IMG/VR virus record: IMGVR_UViG_3300042527_000112
Location: 1 to 26,633 of that record
From: a virus
Reading direction: 5' to 3' (one strand)
DNA length: 26,633 nucleotides
In this document: positions 2,969-14,799 of the stretch, in pieces
How positions within the stretch are numbered: the stretch's first letter is position 1
Layout: every line of letters begins with the position of its first letter
Notes under the pieces: model-generated
Told to the model about the DNA's origin: nothing
The model's database searches: none
The model's input: only the letters and a program-made list of their open reading frames with translations
Position numbers and translations under genes: made by a program

Positions 2969-3496
2969 TTATACGCTTACAGCTGTTATCAGTTGTTCAA
3001 CGGTTGTACAGGCAGCAATCGCGGCTTCTTTAGCGGCGCAGTCAGAAATAATCTTAGCCCGTGCGGCGGCCACATCGGCGGGAATATCTACCCCGCGCTC
3101 GGCCTTGCGGATCACCATCCAGTCGGTTTGGGCGAGTTGGGAGTTAGCTGCGGCCTTGATTTGGGCGATCCACTGAGACTTTAGCCCCTTGGTGACTACC
3201 TGCTCGGCGGTGTCTTCCATCTGCTGGGTGTCGCGGTTATAGGTCTTGACGTACAGGGGTGTGCCGTCTTCTTTAACCTCTGGCCGATCATTTAACAGCT
3301 TTGGATTGTTTACGCCCCAGTAGAACCGCTGGTCGTACCACGGCTCATTTGCCTCAAAGGGATCTGGGTCGTTGGTCTCAACCACGCCAAGTTTTGCCCT
3401 GATCGCTGGGTTAAGCAGGTTTTCATATCGAACCCCGTCTGCACGGAAATACTCCCTGCGGATGTTGACGGGCTGTCCGTTAATTAAATAAGCCAT
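2969..3496 (-). CDS. Tail fibre assembly chaperone-like protein (175 aa)
   Basis: It starts at the ATG at 3496 with a good ribosome site (CGGAG). The C-terminal half holds a helical region with AQTDWMVIRKAERGVDIPA, where a TDW-containing motif precedes a short helix, as seen in phage tail-fibre assembly/DUF4376-type proteins. The N-terminal half (NGQPVNIRREYFRADGVRYENLLNP and a later FYWGVNNPKLL) resembles the client-facing domain of those proteins. It follows directly after the 812-residue adhesin, the usual order for a fibre and its dedicated chaperone. It would help fold or trimerise the fibre and not remain in the virion (family knowledge). Confidence 0.72.
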   Translation of the reverse strand: MAYLINGQPVNIRREYFRADGVRYENLLNPAIRAKLGVVETNDPDPFEANEPWYDQRFYWGVNNPKLLNDRPEVKEDGTPLYVKTYNRDTQQMEDTAEQVVTKGLKSQWIAQIKAAANSQLAQTDWMVIRKAERGVDIPADVAAARAKIISDCAAKEAAIAACTTVEQLITAVSV

Positions 3497-3507: not shown

Positions 3508-5946
3508 TTATCGTGCGAGAGTATATTTAAAGGGGAACTCAGCGAAGGCGGCGTAGATGTAGGTTGTCCCGCTTCCATTTACACCGCCATTAGTTCCACG
3601 AAGTTTAAAGCCGTTAGATAAAAAGTCTGTGTTTCTTGTTGCGCTATCCACTTGTTCTGCATCCGATGTATTAGGAAATAATTGATCGTTCACAGTATTG
3701 AACGGACTTCTAGCAGCATCTTCAACTTGCCAAGAATCAACAACAGTTGACGGTTTGATCAACACATACTCTGGCCTAAAGCCCGTGTATATGAAAGGCC
3801 CATCCGTAGAGCCATTACCCGTATATGAACCAAAGGCAGAGTAGCCAGCGACAGCGGCGAAGCAGTAGGCAATCATTGCATTGCCGGAACCGTTAGTTCC
3901 TTCGCTACTATTACCAACGGTAAATACCGCTGAAGTTGGGCTGGTGTTGTTCCAGAGATTTGTTCCAGTATACGCCGCACCAGTAGTGCTTAAAAACACG
4001 GCTTTAGTATTTCCTAAAGACGAATGGTAAACAACCCATTCACGAGCGCCGGACGTAGCAACCCTATCTTTAACAATTATCATGCTAGGTGTAGCACCAA
4101 GCCCGTGTCCTATGGTAGCGCCAGCAGTTGCGTTACCCGTATAAGTAACAATACTAAAGCCAGCAGTTGTATTTGCTCTTACTGTGCTTGCGATAGACGG
4201 CGTTGAGCCGTATTGGTTTACAGAAATGGTTTGGTTAGAGCCGCCAGCGTTCCAGTTCCATGCAACGTATGTTTGTGTGTTTACATTGCTATTGGTACTT
4301 CCTGTTGTGTTTGCGCCAAGCGAAAACCCATCAGTATTAAAAGCAGTTACAGTATCTGTGTTTGTTTCTTGCGCCGAAGTAGTATTACTAAACAACTGAC
4401 TGTTTACACCTCTAACAGCGTCTGTCAAAGTGTGCCATCCAACATTACTTCTATTTTTAATCCACACAAAATCCGGTTGAAATCCAACTCCTGTAATTGA
4501 CTGTGTGCCTGATGTTGGGTATCCGTTACCCGTATACAGCACCGCATTAAAGTAATCATTCGCTTGTGTCGTACTCGTAGCCCCGATAGTAGGCGTGGGC
4601 AGGTTAGTCGTACATAGTGCTTTGAAGCCTGACGGTGCGGTGTAGGCAAAGGGACGCTGGCCGAAGTTGAGCGTGTAAGTTCCGCTTGGCGCCCAAACCA
4701 TTGGTTTCCACTCTTTACCTATCAAATCCGAAAACGCAGTACCTTGGCTAGACCCATTTTTGTAAAACACAATGGTTCCAGCATCCATGTTAACTGCAAC
4801 ACCAATTATATCTCCATTACCCCAAGTTGCTCCATATGCAGATGTACTACCGTTATATTTACTTCCGTCTGATACGTAGTTTCTGGCTTGTGAACTCCAC
4901 GTGTTATCTGTTTTAATAAACGTAGAATCCATTAGTCCAACATAACCAGCAGATGATATTGCAGAAGCAACAGTTATCTCCCAATACCATTTTCCTGTTG
5001 TAAAAGAAAATGTGCCATATGATCCTGAATTATTCGATAACGCTACATCTAAGTTGCCATTAGTTGGCGTGTTGTAAGTAACATTAAGAGCATAAACTGG
5101 ACTGAGCGTACAGTAGTTACCACGCACCTCACCACCAGCACCTGTGTCTGTGCCGTACTGGGTTGGGCTGTCTACTAGGCTGTCATTACCATCGCCAGCA
5201 GTTACCGAGAAGTTATTAGGCGTCCAGTTGTTGCTGTTGCCTGATGTGTCCTTACCAAGCGTTGTGCTGGTAGTTCCTGAGTTATCGGCAAACTGTAACC
5301 AAAAGCCGTTAGTGCCGTATGTGCCGGTGTACTTAATTGGCTCCCATACGCCCGTGGCTGAGTTTGTCTGGCCAAATGAGGATGGGGTTAATGCTTGACC
5401 GTCGATGAAGTTGACTTCGGTCATGTAGCCATTGAAATTACCTGTTGGCATAAACTGGTTTGCGTATCTACCAATAAAATGCTGTAGGGCAGTATTAAAA
5501 AAAGGCGTAGCATTTTGCGACGGGTAATCAGACCCTGTAAACGTCTGTTGAACACCATTTACGTACATTTTTACCCGATTACTTGCGGTTGCTTGAGTAG
5601 TGTCAACCGCCAATACGATGTGATACCAAGCCGATACATCTCGAAAAACAGCGTTTGTTGTTAAACCACTACTACTATATGCACTAAAAAACAGCCTTAT
5701 TGTATCTCCTGAAAGAAATGCAAAAGAGTCTTCAGCGCCTCCGTTTTGAGCAGTCATAATTGACTGTAGCGTGCCTAATATACTGCGCTTAAGCCACACA
5801 GAAAAAGTAAAAATTTTCCCGTTAGTTGGAGTTCCAAGCGTCCTATTCAGATACGCAGAGTCAGCAGAGTTAAACCGCAGGCTGCGGCTGATCTGATAGC
5901 CTCCGCTTACAAAATTACCCAGCAGTAATTCTTGAGATCCGCTCAC
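3508..5946 (-). CDS. Large adhesin: LamG-like, SPRY-like and three DUF7483-type beta repeats (812 aa)
   Basis: A probable receptor-binding virion protein. Residues 19-195 look like a LamG/concanavalin-fold domain (FTFSVWLKRS, WYHIVLAVD, VKMYVNGVQQ, GYMTEVNFIDGQAL). Residues 300-448 look like a SPRY domain (GKWYWEITV, DIIGVAVNMDAGTIVFYKNG). Residues 468-802 are three beta repeats of about 100 residues, each opening with Y-T-G-N-G or similar, carrying a G-x-x-P-x-(x)-V-x-I-K core and ending in an aromatic YVAWNW/IAYCFA/YIYAAF strand. I associate these with the DUF7483 family (name from memory). The start is GTG (5946), overlapping the upstream stop as GTGA, with no better in-frame start. Base composition by eye is more AT-rich than the head genes, suggesting independent acquisition. 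Confidence 0.85.
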   Translation of the reverse strand: MSGSQELLLGNFVSGGYQISRSLRFNSADSAYLNRTLGTPTNGKIFTFSVWLKRSILGTLQSIMTAQNGGAEDSFAFLSGDTIRLFFSAYSSSGLTTNAVFRDVSAWYHIVLAVDTTQATASNRVKMYVNGVQQTFTGSDYPSQNATPFFNTALQHFIGRYANQFMPTGNFNGYMTEVNFIDGQALTPSSFGQTNSATGVWEPIKYTGTYGTNGFWLQFADNSGTTSTTLGKDTSGNSNNWTPNNFSVTAGDGNDSLVDSPTQYGTDTGAGGEVRGNYCTLSPVYALNVTYNTPTNGNLDVALSNNSGSYGTFSFTTGKWYWEITVASAISSAGYVGLMDSTFIKTDNTWSSQARNYVSDGSKYNGSTSAYGATWGNGDIIGVAVNMDAGTIVFYKNGSSQGTAFSDLIGKEWKPMVWAPSGTYTLNFGQRPFAYTAPSGFKALCTTNLPTPTIGATSTTQANDYFNAVLYTGNGYPTSGTQSITGVGFQPDFVWIKNRSNVGWHTLTDAVRGVNSQLFSNTTSAQETNTDTVTAFNTDGFSLGANTTGSTNSNVNTQTYVAWNWNAGGSNQTISVNQYGSTPSIASTVRANTTAGFSIVTYTGNATAGATIGHGLGATPSMIIVKDRVATSGAREWVVYHSSLGNTKAVFLSTTGAAYTGTNLWNNTSPTSAVFTVGNSSEGTNGSGNAMIAYCFAAVAGYSAFGSYTGNGSTDGPFIYTGFRPEYVLIKPSTVVDSWQVEDAARSPFNTVNDQLFPNTSDAEQVDSATRNTDFLSNGFKLRGTNGGVNGSGTTYIYAAFAEFPFKYTLAR
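3541..4545 (-). repeat. Triplet of ~100-residue beta repeats (A-B-C) in the 812-aa adhesin
   Basis: Residues 468-566 (A), 597-698 (B) and 705-802 (C) are diverged copies of one unit. B is closer to the B units of the 643-residue protein than to its own neighbours: both share YHS(S/A)LG-x-TK, TGTN-x-WN and SPTSAVFT/APTSSVFT. The copies are related at protein level, not as exact DNA repeats. Confidence 0.7.
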
Positions 5947-6431
5947 GACACGTTCCCTGTCACCACACAGACGGTTGAAGAAATAAACAGAATCGTAGCC
6001 ACGCCACGGGTAGCCAGGGTCATCGTGGCCTTATCCGAGTCCGTCCCGGCGATATAGGCGGTCGTAATCGAGCAGGTCATCGTGATGCCGGCTGAGGTGT
6101 TATTAAAGACTGAGACCACATCGCCCTCGGCAAAGGTGGCGTCGGGGATCGTAATCGACCCGCCGGAGCCTACCTGAACGTACTCGCCCACGTCTGCCGT
6201 CGTCAGGGTGTATGACCCTGTTTTTGTTCCGACGGGGGGAATGTTTAGATACCCCAGGGTAGATGTTAAAGACGGCAACGTGCAGGTTACGTTTGAGGCA
6301 AGCGATGAAGGCGCTGTCAGCTCAACGTAGTTAGTCCCGCTATCGGTGTCCTCGGCTAGCCGTACCCGGCCCTGGGTCGTTGACGTACCGTCTAGGGTTA
6401 TTAAGCCGTCGCCGTTAATAGTTGCTGCCAT
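5943..6431 (-). CDS. Small beta-rich virion/fibre-like protein (162 aa)
   Basis: It starts at the ATG at 6431 with a strong AGGAG site formed across the previous gene's stop. The N-terminus (ATINGDGLITLDGTSTTQG, then RVRLAEDTDSGTNYVELTAP) resembles phage fibre proteins that begin with a short shaft followed by an ASNVTCTLPSL segment. The remainder is Thr/Val/Ser-rich with strongly alternating beta character (TLTTADVGEYVQVGSGGSITIP, cupin-like or phage-spike-like by eye). No enzymatic motif is visible. It is coupled by GTGA to the 812-residue adhesin and may be its virion-proximal partner. The function is inferred from neighbours. Confidence 0.72.
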   Translation of the reverse strand: MAATINGDGLITLDGTSTTQGRVRLAEDTDSGTNYVELTAPSSLASNVTCTLPSLTSTLGYLNIPPVGTKTGSYTLTTADVGEYVQVGSGGSITIPDATFAEGDVVSVFNNTSAGITMTCSITTAYIAGTDSDKATMTLATRGVATILFISSTVCVVTGNVS

Positions 6432-6434
6432 GAT

Positions 6435-6692
6435 TTACTCCTGATATGGGAAACGGGCCTTGATCTCGGCCACCTTGTTTTGCCAATCTTGAACGGTTGC
6501 CTCGCCACGCTGGGCCTTGAAGAACAGGCTATCGGACTCAGCCTTATAAGCAGCCTCGCGGGCAGACTTCATCCTGGCGTTGTTTCGGTCTTTTTCACCG
6601 GCAGCCCAAGCAGCTTCTTCAGCATCGCGGGCGGCTTCCTCTTCGGCGGTAAACGGCACCGGGCCGTTAGAAGTCATGTGATGTCGTGCCAT
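6435..6692 (-). CDS. Small tail assembly chaperone-like protein (85 aa)
   Basis: An Ala/Glu-rich helical N-terminus (PFTAEEEAARDAEEAAWAAG) is followed by a C-terminal segment RGEATVQDWQNKVAEIKARF, a pattern I associate with short phage tail/fibre assembly proteins. The start is the ATG at 6692 with AAGGA upstream, two to nine bases after the fibre gene stop. It directly follows the 252-residue fibre-like protein, so it may be that protein's chaperone. There is no membrane segment and no catalytic motif. Confidence 0.7.
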   Translation of the reverse strand: MARHHMTSNGPVPFTAEEEAARDAEEAAWAAGEKDRNNARMKSAREAAYKAESDSLFFKAQRGEATVQDWQNKVAEIKARFPYQE

Positions 6693-6701
6693 GATTATTC
6701 C

Positions 6702-7460
6702 TTAGCTATTCTTAATACCGTAAAGACGGGCTGATCCAGACACAATATTTCCGCTAGAAAAATAAAACTTAACACCGGTTAATGCTTCAGCAGAGGCATA
6801 GTTTTGCGCCCAAAAACTACCCGATCCCATTGATGTGGTTGCGGCTGATGTAATACATAATGCTTGACCATAAATTGTTTTCCAAAGACTTGTTGATGCC
6901 GGATTTGATACATACATAATTGCATCTACATGTTCTCCAGCATCATTTCCCACATTAGGAAGTATGGTTACAGCAGAACCATTTTGTGCCGCGGTACTAT
7001 TAAAACCACCGCTACCACCAGTATTAGATAAATAATTTTCTGAAAATGCACGATAGTTTGTAGTTTGATAACTTCCGTTAATTTTCATTTCAAATCTAAT
7101 TGAAACATTATCTGTTTGAGCAACAAAACCACTAATTACTATCGCATAAACATCGTATGTACTACTAAAAGTAGTTTCTACATCTACGGTTGCGCTATTG
7201 CTTGCAGTTACCGTAGACAGATAAGTCCAAGCTCCGCCCGCTGGTGTAGCAAAACTTAGCGTTCCAGATCCGTTGGTCTGAAGCACTTGTCCGTTTGTTC
7301 CGTCTGTTGTTGGAAAAGTCAACCCATTAAGATTAACTCCAGACGAGCTTACTGTTACTTTGGTCGAACCGTTGGCCTGAAGTTGAAGCTGACCGGAGGC
7401 GTCTCCGGTGCTAACTAAACCGCCAGATCCGGTTGATAGTGCGTTTATGGTTGATGCCAT
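6702..7460 (-). CDS. Tail fibre/adhesin-like protein (252 aa)
   Basis: The N-terminus (GSGGLVSTGDASGQLQLQAN, then GSTKVTVSSSGVNLNG) is the Gly/Ser/Thr-rich anchor seen on many phage fibre and spike proteins and is related to that of the 190-residue protein at 9856. After a linker with TTDGTNGQVLQTNGSGTLSF the C-terminal 170 residues form a separate domain (WTYLSTVTASNSATVDVETTF, later VSIRFEMKINGS and VKFYFSSGNIVSGSARLYGI) with beta-sandwich character. The gene is visibly AT-rich relative to the head genes. It lies between two chaperone-like genes. Receptor or surface binding is the likely role, and the ligand is unknown. Confidence 0.78.
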   Translation of the reverse strand: MASTINALSTGSGGLVSTGDASGQLQLQANGSTKVTVSSSGVNLNGLTFPTTDGTNGQVLQTNGSGTLSFATPAGGAWTYLSTVTASNSATVDVETTFSSTYDVYAIVISGFVAQTDNVSIRFEMKINGSYQTTNYRAFSENYLSNTGGSGGFNSTAAQNGSAVTILPNVGNDAGEHVDAIMYVSNPASTSLWKTIYGQALCITSAATTSMGSGSFWAQNYASAEALTGVKFYFSSGNIVSGSARLYGIKNS

Positions 7461-7463
7461 GTC

Positions 7464-7916
7464 TTACTCCGGTTTGTTAGGCCACTGAATATCCCACGGG
7501 AAGCCAGCCTGTGCAGGTACATCCCGCAACGCTTGTCTGTATGCCGCCCAGGGGGTGCTTACTGAATCCGCAATGTCTTTGCCCTGAGTCCAGTCAGAGT
7601 CAGCCAGGCGGCGGTTTCTGTCATCCCGCACACTCTTGGCCTGCTCAACATTCTTGGCTGCCTTGGTCTCGTCATCCATGTCGGCCACTGAGTACTTGGT
7701 GTACCACTTGCCCTCGACTTGCTCAACCCCGTCACGGAAGGCGACTTGGTATCTTCCCGGCTGGGCCTGCGGGCCTTCAAAGACCGGGTCAGCTTGGAGA
7801 GCCTCAAGGACTTCTGGGGTCAGCCGGTCAAAGGACGGGCCGTTGTTTTCTCTTAGGTATTGACGCAGCTCGCCTTCGTACATCACTGCGCCGTTTGATC
7901 GAAGTCTAATTTCCAT
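7464..7916 (-). CDS. Phage tail assembly chaperone-like protein (150 aa)
   Basis: The C-terminal third reads RDDRNRRLADSDWTQGKDIA followed by AAYRQALRDVPAQAGFPWDI and ends WPNKPE. This is the hallmark of the phage tail assembly chaperone family (Phage_tail_APC type): a helix ending in (D)SDWTQ, then A-YRQALRD, then the P-x-FP-(x)n-WP-xKP ending. The N-terminal half (MYEGELRQYLRENNGPSFDRLTPEVLEAL) resembles the DUF4376-like partner domain. The start is the ATG at 7916 with AGAGG upstream, directly after the 643-residue adhesin stop. It probably assists that protein's folding. Confidence 0.85.
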   Translation of the reverse strand: MEIRLRSNGAVMYEGELRQYLRENNGPSFDRLTPEVLEALQADPVFEGPQAQPGRYQVAFRDGVEQVEGKWYTKYSVADMDDETKAAKNVEQAKSVRDDRNRRLADSDWTQGKDIADSVSTPWAAYRQALRDVPAQAGFPWDIQWPNKPE

Positions 7917-7924
7917 GTTTACCT

Positions 7925-9856
7925 CTAGGCTATCGCCAAAAAGATGAATGTCCCACCGTTAGCGTTTATCGCCGCTGGTGCGGTGCTGCTAATCTCAAAT
8001 CCAGTGCTTGCGGTGTCAACGTAGTCTGTATTGGTGACTTCCGCCGCCGTTGAGTTTAGAAGCAGATATGGATCGTTCCCGGCCACTATGCCGCGAGCCG
8101 AATCCCAGACGTACCAGTCACCTGTGCTATCAGTGCGCTTGATTAACACAAACTGACTACCCGCTGTGAATCCGCAGTTGATAGTTTGTGTAGAGCCTGT
8201 GCCTGTATAAGAACCTACTTTGCTTACCCCTGCAACGGTGGCGAAGAGGTAGGCGACGTATGTTTGTCCAGCTGTGTTAATTGTTCCAGTAGTGCCTATT
8301 GTAAATACTGAAGATGTTGGCGCAGTATCATTCCATCTATTAGTGCCTGTGTTTTCAGCACTAGTATTAAATTCAAGATATTTTGTTGCTCCTAATGCGC
8401 TGTGATAAATAGTCCAAGCACCAGATGTGCTTCGTGCTTTTAAAATCATTAACTCAGGCACAACACCTAAGTTGTGGCTTACTGTTGTAGCAGAACCAGT
8501 GCCTGTATAGCAGACCACATCAAAGAAGCCAGGGGCGCGGCGAAAGTGCCACCTCGCTTGATTATTGTTGTTATACGAAAGTTGAAAACTATTTTGTAAA
8601 TCAAATTGGCAAACACTTACAGTTTGTTCTGCGGCAGTCGATGCTGTTCCACCAAAATATTTGTTATCACCAGCCAGTCGATATACCACAACGGTATTAA
8701 GGGCATTTCCTGACTGATCTGCTGCAAAACAAGCATCGGTTGGAAATCCGACAGAATAAGACGAACTTCCAGAATGAACTTTTGGGTAAAACACACTTGT
8801 CCCACTCGTAGGCGTTTTCATCGGCCCACGGCGAATGGCGATGTAGATGAATGTATTACCATTATTATTTGGCGACCCCGCTGTGTCCAACTGAAAACCA
8901 GTAGCGGTTGGAGATAAAACTGTTGAATCTGATTCTGCGTTAGAAAGATTAGGAATTAAATTTGCATCTGCATCCCCAACAGGCATACCTCGCATATTGT
9001 CAAGCAAATACCAATTCTGAACGGCGCTTGCATTCTTAATTAAAACCCATTGAGGCTCATATCCAAGGTTAATAACAGGCCCATTAGTATCGCTTCCATT
9101 TCCAGTATAAGAGCCACAAGTAATCACATTTTGATCGCCAGCAAGACCAAAACCTCCAGCATTGTGGGCAAAGAGGTAGGCTATGTAATTTGATCCGGAT
9201 ACATTTACCATTCCGTCTGTGCCAACGGTAAACGTAGTAGAGGATACAGACTTAACAGTTGATGTGTTTGAAGATTCTGCGTCTGTTTTATTTAATCTAA
9301 GGCCATAATTTGCTGCTAAGGATCTGTGATAAACAAACCAATCATCTCCGCTTAATCGACGAACAATTACACATCCTGGTGTTGATCCAAGATCATGTGC
9401 AATTTGTCGGTTATCAACACTATCGCCACTGTAAGTAACTATATCAAAAAACTTTGGCTGCTCGCGGAATGTCCATGAGACGTATGTCTGCGTGTTTGAA
9501 TTTGCGGAACCGTTTGATCCAAGACCAAATCCATTAGCGTTAAACCCAGTAATCCACGCATTTGCAGGAATGCCTGAAACGCTTGTATTTGGATCTGCAT
9601 TATTTGAACTAAGCAGATAGTCTGCGCCACGAACCGTGTCAAACAATCCGTTGTTGTAGCCAAGGCTCCTGCCTTTCAACCAAACCAACCCGCCTTTTGT
9701 AGACAGATCAATGTTGTTGGTGATCGTCTGTGTAGAGCCGTTGCCTGTATAGAGGTATGTCGAAAAGACATCTTCAATGTAATTAACTGCCGCAGACTGG
9801 GCGAACTCCCCAAATCCCTGAGCAGATGCGGCGCCTCTGGTCGCAATCAGCGGCAT
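7925..9856 (-). CDS. Large repeat adhesin, two A-B-C triplets of DUF7483-type repeats (643 aa)
   Basis: After a short N-terminal anchor (about residues 1-33) nearly the whole protein consists of six beta repeats of about 95-100 residues: A 34-130, B 136-230, C 247-343, a degenerate A' 350-440, B 444-540 and C 547-643. Typical unit features are an opening Y-(T/S)-G-(N/T/D)-G, an L/P-x-x-V-(x)-IK/RR core, an aromatic W-x-x-x-(D/H) turn and a closing YVSWTF/YIAYLF/FIYIAI strand. I associate the family with DUF7483 in aquatic phages (name from memory). It starts at the ATG at 9856, overlapping the upstream stop as TAATG. The likely role is host or surface recognition. It shares repeats with the 812-residue adhesin. 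Confidence 0.83.
   Translation of the reverse strand: MPLIATRGAASAQGFGEFAQSAAVNYIEDVFSTYLYTGNGSTQTITNNIDLSTKGGLVWLKGRSLGYNNGLFDTVRGADYLLSSNNADPNTSVSGIPANAWITGFNANGFGLGSNGSANSNTQTYVSWTFREQPKFFDIVTYSGDSVDNRQIAHDLGSTPGCVIVRRLSGDDWFVYHRSLAANYGLRLNKTDAESSNTSTVKSVSSTTFTVGTDGMVNVSGSNYIAYLFAHNAGGFGLAGDQNVITCGSYTGNGSDTNGPVINLGYEPQWVLIKNASAVQNWYLLDNMRGMPVGDADANLIPNLSNAESDSTVLSPTATGFQLDTAGSPNNNGNTFIYIAIRRGPMKTPTSGTSVFYPKVHSGSSSYSVGFPTDACFAADQSGNALNTVVVYRLAGDNKYFGGTASTAAEQTVSVCQFDLQNSFQLSYNNNNQARWHFRRAPGFFDVVCYTGTGSATTVSHNLGVVPELMILKARSTSGAWTIYHSALGATKYLEFNTSAENTGTNRWNDTAPTSSVFTIGTTGTINTAGQTYVAYLFATVAGVSKVGSYTGTGSTQTINCGFTAGSQFVLIKRTDSTGDWYVWDSARGIVAGNDPYLLLNSTAAEVTNTDYVDTASTGFEISSTAPAAINANGGTFIFLAIA
7928..9757 (-). 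repeat. Six ~100-residue beta repeats in A-B-C-A'-B-C order
   Basis: The second triplet copies the first in order, but its A unit (residues 350-440) has lost the opening YTGNG and the closing strand is WHFRRAP in place of YVSWTFREQP. The B units share FFD(I/V)V-x-Y-(S/T)-G at their start, and the C units share GSYTG. The order indicates duplication of a three-unit block, with later decay of one unit. Confidence 0.7.
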
Positions 9857-10428
9857 TATGCAAACCTCGTCTGAGCGGCAAACACCGTAAATGCGGCGTT
9901 ACCGGTCTTGATGATCGTATAAGTGTAGGCATCAATACTGCTTGCGTTACCAGCCGACCATGCCGTGCCACCTTGATACTTAGGCGTCACCGAGCTGCCG
10001 TCTACTTGGACGACGTTGTTGTAGTAAGCCGTAGCGCCTTGGGTAACAAAGAAGGCCACGGTCAGAGACTCGCCGGTAGCCATCAGCGTGTTAAGGCTTG
10101 TACCGCTCGATCCACGGAAGTTCACCGTCCAGTTAGCCGAGGCGTTTGATGTGTAGTACAGAACCGCTTGGGTCGTGACGTCGTAGTTAATTGTCCCGGT
10201 GGCTGCCGTGGCCGAGATCGTGGCGGTCTCCAGCACATCGGAAATCTTTGCCCCAGCTACGCTTGATGACCCAGTTAACACTGCCTTACCGGCAAACGTG
10301 GCTGACTGGTCTGTTCCTAGCGTAACCGCCGTGGTCGTGCCGTTGGTCTGGAGAACCAGCTGGCCTGTCGTGTCGCCGCTGTTTACCAGCGCGGTGCCGG
10401 ATGTGAGTCCTGCTGCAATCGTACTCAT
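9856..10428 (-). CDS. Tail fibre-like protein (190 aa)
   Basis: The N-terminus (AAGLTSGTALVNSGDTTGQL, then VLQTNGTTTAVTL and a TFAGKAVLTG segment) is a widespread phage fibre anchor and is clearly related to the start of the 252-residue fibre at 7460. The C-terminal 130 residues (SATAATGTINYDVTTQAVLY, WTVNFRGSSGTSLNTLMATGE, AYTYTIIKTGNAAFTVFAAQ) form a compact beta domain that recurs in uncultured phage fibre proteins. A strong AAGGAG site precedes the ATG at 10428. It is coupled by TAATG to the 643-residue adhesin. There is no enzymatic motif, and the role is inferred as a short fibre or spike. Confidence 0.78.
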   Translation of the reverse strand: MSTIAAGLTSGTALVNSGDTTGQLVLQTNGTTTAVTLGTDQSATFAGKAVLTGSSSVAGAKISDVLETATISATAATGTINYDVTTQAVLYYTSNASANWTVNFRGSSGTSLNTLMATGESLTVAFFVTQGATAYYNNVVQVDGSSVTPKYQGGTAWSAGNASSIDAYTYTIIKTGNAAFTVFAAQTRFA

Positions 10429-10763: not shown

Positions 10764-11810
10764 TTATGCTTCCTTATAAAACTTTAGGTTAGTCTTTAAT
10801 CTTTCTATGTCGGGGGCCATGTCTACGGCAATCTGGCCATGCTTTACCGCCTCGTCTTTTAACTTTAAATTGTACGCACTTAGTGCAATCAAATCGTGTA
10901 GCAGGTAGCCCCAGGCCGATGCGTCGTACGTGTGCTGGGCGATGTTTCTAGTTATTGACAGCGCCGTCTTTGCCGTACCGTAGCACTCGGGCCACAGATC
11001 TCGCTTGTAGCACCCATACGCCAGCGCGTACCAGTTTTCCCGTATCGTTGGGTCCTCGGCGCACGCCAATCTTAGCCAGCGCATTCCGTCTTGGCCCATA
11101 TTTTCAATCGACCCGCCAATCATCCTCATGGCGTGGCTTCTTTCCAGCGGCCACATCGACCGCGGCAGTAACAAATATCTCTGAAGCTCTTTTGTTGCGT
11201 CGTCCCACCGCTGGTGGTACGTATACTCACGCCCGAGGTAGTACGCCATCCTCTGGCAATTTAAATCTTCTTTTGCGCCCATCTCCAACATGTCGAGGTA
11301 CTGCCCCCGACTTTTTGTTGTGTCCGGCAGGTGACGCATTAGTATGTCGTCCGTCTGCGCGTAGATGTCCTTGCACCTTGGGTCTGGCGTTATGTACTCG
11401 TGGCATACATACTTCCAATAGTACCCGTGTCTTGCGTGTATCCTGGACGGGTAAAACACCAAACCATTGCCCGAGTCAAACCCAAATCCCATGCGCGTGT
11501 GGCCGTCGTTAAAAATCTTCTCCACGTAGTCGCGCCAGCCGGGCAACAACACCTCGTCTAGGTCCATCGAGACGCACACATCGACGTCCTTGGGCACCAG
11601 GGCCAGGGCGGCGTTTCTTGCCGCGTCAAACCTAAATGGAGAGACTAAAACCTCGTAAACCTGGGCGCCGCACTGCCTTCCAATCTCGACAGTTTTATCT
11701 TCCGAGCCGGTGTCCGCTATTACAATCAGATCTGCATCTTTGGCGGACTCACAAAATCTTTTTACGTGTTTTTCTTCATTTTTACTGATCGCATATACCG
11801 CAATCTTCAT
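10764..11810 (-). CDS. Glycosyltransferase family 2 protein with TPR-like C-terminus (348 aa)
   Basis: The N-terminal 100 residues carry the GT2 hallmarks in order: AISKNEE (residues 7-13), IADTGSEDKT (31-40), RFDAARN (60-66) and the metal/nucleotide-binding MDLDE (D83, D85). A later YVCHEYI (H137-E138) matches the acceptor-side HE motif of this GT2 subgroup. Residues from about 170 are helical, with repeated tyrosine/alanine-rich pairs that look like TPR units (KSRGQYLDMLEMGAKED onward), which often position protein substrates. It transfers a sugar from a nucleotide donor to an unknown acceptor in the cytoplasm. Position directly after the collagen-like fibre suggests glycosylation of that fibre or of another virion protein, which is inference. 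AAAGG precedes the ATG. Confidence 0.9.
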   Translation of the reverse strand: MKIAVYAISKNEEKHVKRFCESAKDADLIVIADTGSEDKTVEIGRQCGAQVYEVLVSPFRFDAARNAALALVPKDVDVCVSMDLDEVLLPGWRDYVEKIFNDGHTRMGFGFDSGNGLVFYPSRIHARHGYYWKYVCHEYITPDPRCKDIYAQTDDILMRHLPDTTKSRGQYLDMLEMGAKEDLNCQRMAYYLGREYTYHQRWDDATKELQRYLLLPRSMWPLERSHAMRMIGGSIENMGQDGMRWLRLACAEDPTIRENWYALAYGCYKRDLWPECYGTAKTALSITRNIAQHTYDASAWGYLLHDLIALSAYNLKLKDEAVKHGQIAVDMAPDIERLKTNLKFYKEA

Positions 11811-11824
11811 TAAACACCTTTCTG

Positions 11825-14303
<2,479 letters not shown>

Positions 14304-14304
14304 G

Positions 14305-14799
14305 TTAGCTTGGGGTTACTGGATTGCCGCCGCCGTTATCAACCCAGGTATCTGCAGCCGCAGACCCGGTGGCAATCTTAATCTTGGTGTTGGTGGTCTC
14401 CCACACAACACGCCCAGATGCCTTGCCTGTGGTGTTGATGGCGTTTGCAATGTCTGCAATCTCGCCGGCGGTAACGTTCGTCAGGATTTGAGGCCCTGTA
14501 GCCCCAGTTGCTCCGGTTGGTCCCGTAGCGCCTGTTGCACCTGTGGCTCCGGTTGCACCCGTCGCGCCAGTGGCTCCCGTTGGTCCAAGCGGAGGCGCCT
14601 GCCATATCGGCGCGGCTCCGGTACCCTGAGATATTAAAACGTTGCCAGAGGATCCAGTTGCTTGCAGAACCGCATATACAACCTCGTCGGGGGTGGCCTT
14701 AGTCGTGGACGCGCCGCTGTTTGAGACAAGCGGAAGCACGTCCACGGCCGGATCGACCGTGGTAACCGCGGGGAGCGCAGATATCTTGACGTCGGGCAT
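14305..14799 (-). CDS. Short collagen-like fibre protein (164 aa)
   Basis: Residues 1-70 form a phage fibre anchor ([20 protein letters not shown], then VLPLVSNSG and [10 protein letters not shown]). Residues 72-103 are a collagen-like GPT/GAT run. Residues 104-164 are a small C-terminal domain ([20 protein letters not shown], later [20 protein letters not shown]). This is the same anchor-collagen-cap design as the 710-residue fibre but much shorter. Its ATG follows the previous stop by two bases with only a weak ribosome site. It is likely a minor or shaft fibre. Confidence 0.82.
14491..14586 (-). repeat. Collagen-like Gly-X-Y repeats in the 164-aa fibre
   Basis: About eleven GPT/GAT triplets, residues 72-103. 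They match the triplet style of the 710-residue fibre two genes downstream. Confidence 0.85.

What the first reader, a model, noticed from the sequence alone, without database searches (positions are those of the whole stretch)
3541..9757. Two big adhesins share an A-B-C repeat triplet, and one has doubled it
The 643-residue protein is A-B-C-A'-B-C, with the second A decayed, and the 812-residue protein ends in one A-B-C. Same-letter units resemble each other across the two genes more than neighbouring units do (for example the B units share YHSxLGxTK and TGTNxWN). The functional module is therefore the three-unit block, which appears to be copied whole.
Basis: seen in the sequence. Interest (0 to 1): 0.56.

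Follow-up and report, generated by a model that had tools for sequence, protein, structure and literature searches.

The report
Phage fibre proteins with three-part blocks
Two phage tail-fibre proteins are built from the same block of three related pieces, and relatives from many phages use and copy that block as a whole, which suggests how these poorly known, probably host-binding proteins are put together.

Summary
The repeats are real. The A-B-C block is Pfam DUF7483 (PF24299, about 330 aa, function unknown): one copy ends the 812-aa protein (LamG-like + SPRY + block), two make up the 643-aa protein. Profiles and a 99-unit tree group units by letter across both genes; grouping by gene is rejected (AU p 7.8e-5). 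The block is the module: 201 of 207 distinct complete unit-bearing ORFs hold whole A-B-C blocks; five of the six exceptions are pieces of one broken frame or one TGA-recoded gene. AlphaFold2 gives one rigid body (pLDDT 91.8, pTM 0.92). The 'decayed' A is not decay: it is family-wide, keeps its strands and merely changes fastest. The doubling is old, not specific to this phage. Most likely function: distal tail-fibre adhesins; each type has its own downstream chaperone-like gene, without cross-pairing, also in named phages. A pseudo-trimeric single-chain arrangement is suggested but weakly supported. Known family, new anatomy; receptor binding is inferred, not shown.

The parts
3508..5946 (-). 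812-aa protein: LamG-like N-terminal part (about aa 28-280), SPRY domain, C-terminal A-B-C block (DUF7483)
   Evidence: PF24299 aa 462-805 E 1.7e-117, PF00622 SPRY aa 319-430 E 5.7e-15; PHROG 27411 over aa 28-436. LamG is named from annotators' labels on relatives; Pfam gave no LamG hit in the window protein
4657..4992 (-). SPRY domain of the 812-aa protein (aa 319-430)
4159..4557 (-). unit A of the 812-aa protein (aa 464-596; core 464-568 plus linker to B)
3844..4158 (-). unit B of the 812-aa protein (aa 597-701)
3511..3843 (-). unit C of the 812-aa protein (aa 702-812)
7925..9856 (-). 643-aa protein: short N-terminus then two DUF7483 blocks, A1-B1-C1-A2-B2-C2
   Evidence: PF24299 E 2.7e-105, two stretches; three DUF7483 places in the record
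9452..9769 (-). unit A1 (aa 30-135)
9128..9451 (-). unit B1 (aa 136-243)
8816..9127 (-). unit C1 (aa 244-347)
   Evidence: profile match to A units, placed with A units in the tree, eight predicted strands, conserved in the family
8225..8527 (-). unit B2 (aa 444-544)
7928..8224 (-). unit C2 (aa 545-643)
7464..7916 (-). 150-aa phage tail assembly chaperone, directly downstream of the 643-aa gene
   Evidence: PF16778 E 8.7e-20; a relative directly downstream of 57 of 76 two-block genes and of 6 of 6 annotated ones
2969..3496 (-). 175-aa tail-fibre-assembly-like protein, directly downstream of the 812-aa gene
   Evidence: PHROG 4912 tail fiber assembly E 7.3e-05, no Pfam hit at E 0.01; a relative directly downstream of 67 of 114 single-block genes of 650 aa or more
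9856..10428 (-). 190-aa small fibre-region protein directly upstream of the 643-aa gene
   Evidence: PHROG 5906 E 8e-26, function unknown; a relative directly upstream of 41 of 74 two-block genes

Best explanation
Both proteins are distal tail-fibre adhesins. Their host-facing parts are DUF7483 blocks: three homologous but fixed-role beta-sandwich units (A, B, C) in one chain that fold into a single rigid head. Shown here by sequence and prediction: the units, the fixed order, the block that is hardly ever divided, the compact predicted fold, the tail-region location, and a separate downstream chaperone-like gene for each adhesin type. Inferred: the chaperone folds or attaches its own adhesin; variable loops at equivalent places of the units form the surface that touches the host envelope (probably glycans); the three units pack round a pseudo-threefold axis like a fused trimer. 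The 812-aa protein carries one head behind two lectin-like domains (LamG-like, SPRY); the 643-aa protein carries two heads in series, the second with a fast-evolving A unit.
For: DUF7483 matches. Letter clades in 99 units: A 32 rows 99/88*, B 33 rows plus one stray long-branch A 99/98*, C 33 rows 98/97*; profile scores within a letter 88-224, across letters 35-96. 201 of 207 distinct complete unit-bearing ORFs hold whole A-B-C blocks; free-standing single-block proteins of about 341-363 aa exist. AlphaFold2: block pLDDT 91.8, pTM 0.92; whole 643-aa protein 89.3 and 0.88. Downstream gene: two-block 57 of 76 with a relative of the window's PF16778 chaperone and none with the 175-aa type; single-block genes of 650 aa or more 67 of 114 with the 175-aa type and none with the PF16778 type. 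In 6 of 6 annotated phages with a two-block gene that were fetched, the next gene is PF16778. Relatives are annotated as tail fiber, fiber or virion structural protein. Variable columns coincide between most units. Fold leads to single-chain trimers.
Against: No solved structure is related by sequence and no structural match is strong: Z 4.8 at best for the block, 5.1 for the 643-aa model. The three-unit matches to single-chain C1q-type trimers are weak (Z 3.5 and 3.1), and in Foldseek's own listing the TM-score by the query is 0.31 or less. Coupling analysis cannot tell a ring from a chain. Variable loops are expected in any surface beta-sandwich. In four phages of the same host strain (CRP-1, -4, -9, -13) no unit A to C is especially conserved (pairwise 0.31-0.70), so no unit is marked as the receptor-binding one. 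Chaperone pairing is incomplete: 9 of 76 and 35 of 114 genes have another neighbour. No binding or virion data.
Confidence: 0.6

Rival explanations
1. The blocks are structural spacers of the fibre (rigid stalk segments) and the receptor is bound by another part: LamG-like/SPRY in the 812-aa protein, or a neighbouring gene such as the 710-aa collagen-like fibre.
For: Two blocks in series and three in cyanophage S-B68 look like length modules; C2, the last unit, is the most conserved, also without motif selection (0.53), unlike a typical variable tip; the 710-aa protein has collagen repeats.
Against: Free-standing single-block proteins have no other domain to do the binding; the block is C-terminal in the window proteins and in many relatives; loops vary strongly in most units.
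Confidence: 0.22
2. A, B and C are independent repeat domains that only happen to be duplicated together, without forming one body.
For: Each unit alone resembles a stand-alone beta-sandwich (single-unit matches of about 80 residues to galectins and other jelly rolls).
Against: Units hardly ever occur outside the A-B-C order (201 of 207); pTM 0.92 for 354 residues means that relative unit positions are predicted confidently; letters have diverged into separate clades, as fixed roles would predict.
Confidence: 0.12
3. The proteins are carbohydrate-active enzymes of the tail.
For: Weak matches to beta domains of glycoside hydrolases and a weak profile hit to kappa-carrageenase (E 0.029).
Against: Those VIA matches align about 75-100 residues of beta-sandwich; no enzyme family passes a cut-off in Pfam and none is named among the PHROG hits.
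Confidence: 0.05

Closest known systems
Pfam PF24299 DUF7483
   Same: The block is this domain: three stretches in the window, all over the curated cut-off.
   Different: Pfam models it as one 330-residue domain of unknown function; the internal A-B-C triplication, the double-block form and the chaperone pairing are what this work adds. Whether Pfam's own entry text mentions a repeat was not seen.
Two-block proteins of Roseobacter phages CRP-1, CRP-4, CRP-9, CRP-13, CRP-603 and Caudoviricetes sp. ctnlZ23 (MW202710)
   Same: Match over most of the 643-aa protein (92-96% covered, 38-48% identity); PF16778 gene directly downstream in all six.
   Different: The N-terminus differs (identity 0.24-0.35); CRP-603 carries a longer front part, 902 aa.
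SPRY-DUF7483 protein of Methylophilales phage MEP301 (gp16)
   Same: 99% of the 812-aa protein covered, 45.8% identity; downstream gene related to the window's 175-aa protein, E 2.2e-31.
   Different: No two-block protein was seen in the fetched stretch.
Single-chain C1q-type globular heads (PDB 5hzf; Cbln1 trimer in 5kca)
   Same: The only listed VIA row of the block model that aligns more than 200 residues and spans all three units: 218 residues, rmsd 5.4, Z 3.5; block 2 of the 643-aa model aligns over 354-643 with 5kca, 188 residues, rmsd 4.8, Z 3.1.
   Different: No sequence relation; Z far below a safe level. A lead on arrangement, not membership.
Fibre gene plus adjacent assembly chaperone pairs (T4 gp37/gp38, lambda stf/tfa, Mu S/U; recalled)
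   Same: Adhesin gene directly followed by a small assembly-type gene.
   Different: Not compared with those adhesins here; function of the small genes was not tested.

Membership tests
DUF7483 (PF24299) | match over the curated cut-off (27 bits) along the whole profile | tested here: met
   392.7 bits, profile 2-330 in the 812-aa protein; 352.6 bits in the 643-aa protein, first stretch profile 4-327; second block profile 128-327, its A part too divergent for this profile
DUF7483 (PF24299) | occurrence in tailed phages | tested here: met
   window record is a virus record with terminase and portal genes; relatives in 69 and 81 phage records
SPRY (PF00622) | match over the curated cut-off | tested here: met
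   55.9 bits against 26.3
Laminin-G-like | profile match in the N-terminal part of the 812-aa protein | tested here: inconclusive
   no Pfam LamG hit up to E 1; relatives are annotated LamG-like or laminin G
C1q/TNF-like heads | sequence relation | tested here: not met
   profile searches of PDB sequences list no C1q chain up to E 1
C1q/TNF-like heads | three jelly-roll units packed round a threefold axis | tested here: inconclusive
   VIA Z 3.5, 218 residues, rmsd 5.4; Z 3.1, 188 residues, rmsd 4.8; coordinates of the models were not available for measurement
Phage_tail_APC (PF16778), 150-aa neighbour | match over the curated cut-off | tested here: met
   70.8 bits against 26.6
Phage_tail_APC (PF16778), 175-aa neighbour | match in Pfam | tested here: not met
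   no family up to E 0.01; PHROG 4912 E 7.3e-05
Phage tail-fibre adhesin | gene among tail genes next to an assembly chaperone | tested here: met
Phage tail-fibre adhesin | present in the virion and binds the host | not testable with these tools
   needs proteomics, microscopy or adsorption assays

The most novel reading that the evidence does not exclude
DUF7483 is a single-chain pseudo-trimer: a fibre head that once was a homotrimer has been fused into one gene, freeing the three 'subunits' to specialise (A, B, C), and phages then use this asymmetric head as a cassette, in one, two or three copies, each adhesin type served by its own assembly chaperone.
Probability: 0.3. Interest if true: 0.62.

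Novelty: new member of a known kind. Interest (0 to 1): 0.4.

Why it matters
DUF7483 proteins are widespread among aquatic phages (hosts listed include Pelagibacter, Roseobacter-group bacteria, Synechococcus, Prochlorococcus and Vibrio), and no paper in the searched library names the domain. Knowing that the functional piece is a fixed three-unit block, with a partner chaperone, gives exact construct boundaries for expression and structure work and lets annotators call these genes adhesin candidates. If the pseudo-trimer reading holds, it would be a natural case of a symmetric fibre head turned into an asymmetric single chain.

Tried and rejected
Decay of the second A: rejected. Recent copying between the two genes of this phage: rejected, since the window's 812-aa units A and C fall with units of other single-block proteins and the 643-aa units with other two-block proteins (B units of single blocks are unresolved there; the block tree agrees). 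Very high conservation of C2 (0.82): mostly a sampling effect, as 63 of 69 proteins carry the exact search peptide TGDWYVWD; in proteins found without motif selection C2 is 0.53, still the highest unit, and A2 0.31, still the lowest. Marking a receptor-binding unit from phages of one host: no signal. Ring or chain from residue couplings (mean-field DCA, 160 sequences, effective 155, 321 columns): A-C pairs are as frequent as A-B among the top 100 (6 against 5, B-C 2), but sequences are too few to decide. One-origin test of C1+C2: undecided. Fold search: no strong relative in PDB; Foldseek lists single chains with three beta domains (adiponectin and C1q single-chain trimers, PCSK9, APCbeta, Parkia lectin) but with rmsd of roughly 10-22, so only the VIA rows speak to geometry. 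Papers: 'DUF7483' 0 papers; pelagiphage + tail fiber + SPRY 0; pseudo-trimer + phage + receptor-binding 2, neither on such proteins by title.

Known weaknesses of the sets: the single-block alignment A2 holds five first blocks of two-block-type proteins (L018, L011, L072, L068, L044), which also sit in the 812 profiles; this explains row s65 lying with the two-block rows, and it was moved to that side for the AU tests. Tree row s66_one_A fell among B units with a very long branch (3.45) and was kept. Identical proteins were counted once; this left 69 sequences including the window's. L001 is identical to the window protein, so the counts include the window's own proteins.

Full report
WHAT IS THERE. 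The window is a 26.6-kb virus record with terminase, portal and head genes followed on the minus strand by tail and fibre genes. The finding covers two genes: 643 aa (7925-9856) and, further along transcription, 812 aa (3508-5946).

UNITS. Cutting at the recurring start of each unit gives nine units. Same-letter pairs lead the pairwise ranking; A2 matches nothing convincingly on its own. Profiles built from 69 two-block and 68 single-block sequences put each unit's best partner in its own letter class: B units 217-224, A1 with 812_A 195, C1 with 812_C 218, C2 with 812_C 157, A2 with 812_A 98 and A1 88; scores across letters are 35-96. A maximum-likelihood tree of 99 units (11 per class, 108 columns; the program warns of few columns and an unsettled bootstrap) gives A (99/88*), B (99/98*, with one stray long-branch A row) and C (98/97*).

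THE BLOCK IS THE MODULE. Among 207 distinct complete ORFs with units in loci L001-L250, 119 are A-B-C, 74 are A-B-C-a-B-C, 4 are A-B-C twice with a gap; S-B68 has two proteins with three blocks, and two others keep the order with a long gap between A and B: 201 whole-block proteins in all. The six exceptions are phage C72C1 (extra A and B-C), two pieces of one gene in L075 and three pieces of one gene in L244. The L244 gene, from a Gracilibacteria MAG, reads as one long A-B-C-a-B-C protein when TGA is glycine, with ten in-frame TGAs before its last codon. These loci were nearly all fetched by similarity to the block, so lone distant units could be missed. Free-standing one-block genes exist (L127 checked by Pfam), and a LamG-SPRY-like part can be a separate neighbouring gene (L127, by eye).

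THE SECOND A. A2 is part of the aligned two-block family throughout (69 sequences, mean occupancy 0.96), with pairwise identity 0.37 against 0.52-0.82 for the other units. The model gives it eight strands with ten-residue pLDDT means mostly 82-92, lowest 72. It is a divergent, intact, fast-evolving unit. The first set was pulled mainly by a peptide in C2 (63 of 69 carry it), so C2's 0.82 is inflated; in six proteins found by tblastn plus the window protein the means are A1 0.47, B1 0.46, C1 0.44, A2 0.31, B2 0.42, C2 0.53.

DOUBLING. A block tree (72 rows chosen from 319 blocks, quick method, SH-aLRT only) puts first and second blocks of two-block proteins, with EBPR siphovirus 2 gp70 (a single block, beside the first blocks), on one side of a split with support 98. 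That fits one old doubling of a whole block. In S-B68 three of the blocks (two of one protein, one of the other) group together (support 82 and 96), a separate case of whole-block copying. The root is not known, and C1+C2 as sisters is neither shown nor rejected (AU p 0.298). Whole two-block genes also stand in tandem (three in L044, two in L070; per-unit identity 0.31-0.76), so they are old paralogues or acquisitions.

STRUCTURE. AlphaFold2 models are confident: block 91.8/0.92, 643-aa protein 89.3/0.88. Each unit is an all-beta sandwich by its strand pattern. PDB comparison finds no strong relative. Most rows align one unit. In the block model the only listed VIA row that aligns over 200 residues across all three units is the single-chain C1q head 5hzf (Z 3.5, rmsd 5.4, 218 residues); in the 643-aa model 5kca, which holds a Cbln1 C1q trimer, aligns 188 residues over 354-643 (Z 3.1, rmsd 4.8). 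These Z values are in the range the tool calls common, so a pseudo-trimer is a hypothesis. I had no coordinates to measure.

NEIGHBOURS. A relative of the window's 150-aa PF16778 chaperone is directly downstream of 57 of 76 two-block genes (9 other, 10 without an ORF in the data); several of the 'other' genes look by eye like homing endonucleases (not searched). The window's 175-aa type follows 67 of 114 single-block genes of 650 aa or more (35 other, 12 none) and 8 of 20 free-standing blocks; no cross-pairing was seen. The six annotated two-block phages that I fetched all have PF16778 next. A relative of the window's 190-aa protein precedes 41 of 74 two-block genes against 3 of 99 single-block ones of that size. 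So each adhesin sits in its own small gene set. Having both adhesin types in one phage looks unusual: 0 of 24 two-block loci with at least 4.4 kb downstream show another unit-bearing gene there, while L085/L165 (one contig) and L195 do show both types.

FUNCTION. Location, annotation of relatives, chaperone pairing, lectin-like partner domains and equivalent variable loops (Spearman 0.53-0.82 between units other than A2 and C2, lower with those two) point to distal tail-fibre adhesins. Literature: passages of PMC6918029 state in general terms that phage tail fibres are responsible for host specificity; passages of PMC7468147 describe C1q-domain proteins as putative, highly variable phage receptor-binding proteins, a different domain by sequence. 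PMC8528129 was seen only in a search listing. Receptor binding itself is inferred.

VERDICT. The family is known by name only; its anatomy was not found in the papers searched.

Noticed in passing
L244:5001-6893: A Gracilibacteria MAG contig carries a two-block DUF7483 gene with ten in-frame TGA codons before its last codon; read as glycine (table 25) it is open throughout, and several fall on glycines conserved in the family (for example in the RG, GF and GNG motifs). Probably a phage or prophage using its host's code.
   Followed up: partly
L070:6900-7588; L022, L018, L077, L241 just after the two-block gene: Genes between the adhesin and its usual chaperone position look by eye like homing endonucleases (GIY-YIG or HNH-associated type); not searched against a library.
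   Followed up: no
L044:3-6290; L070:4851-9670: Two or three two-block adhesin genes in tandem, only 31-76% identical per unit: a possible reservoir of alternative adhesins.
   Followed up: partly
window 10764-11810 (-): Glycosyltransferase (PF00535 E 3e-06; PHROG 13126, beta-1,4-glycosyltransferase, E 1.4e-90) among the fibre genes.
   Followed up: no
window 11825-13957 and 14305-14799 (-): 710-aa fibre protein with strong collagen repeats (PF01391 E 5.6e-36) and a smaller neighbour with a weak collagen-type match.
   Followed up: no
window 9856-10428, 6702-7460 and 5943-6431 (-): The small proteins of 190, 252 and 162 aa begin with similar-looking stretches (G-D-x-x-G-Q-L-x-L-Q in two); phmmer between them printed no match, so this is by eye only.
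   Followed up: partly
BFVD entries A0A516L4G1 (117 aa) and A0A8S0I7N3 (110 aa): Single-unit proteins matching one unit of the block (TM over target 0.88 and 0.79); fragments or a possible one-unit ancestor type.
   Followed up: no
L250:5201-9538 and 41541-46331: Cyanophage S-B68 has two giant proteins with three A-B-C blocks each, annotated hypothetical.
   Followed up: partly
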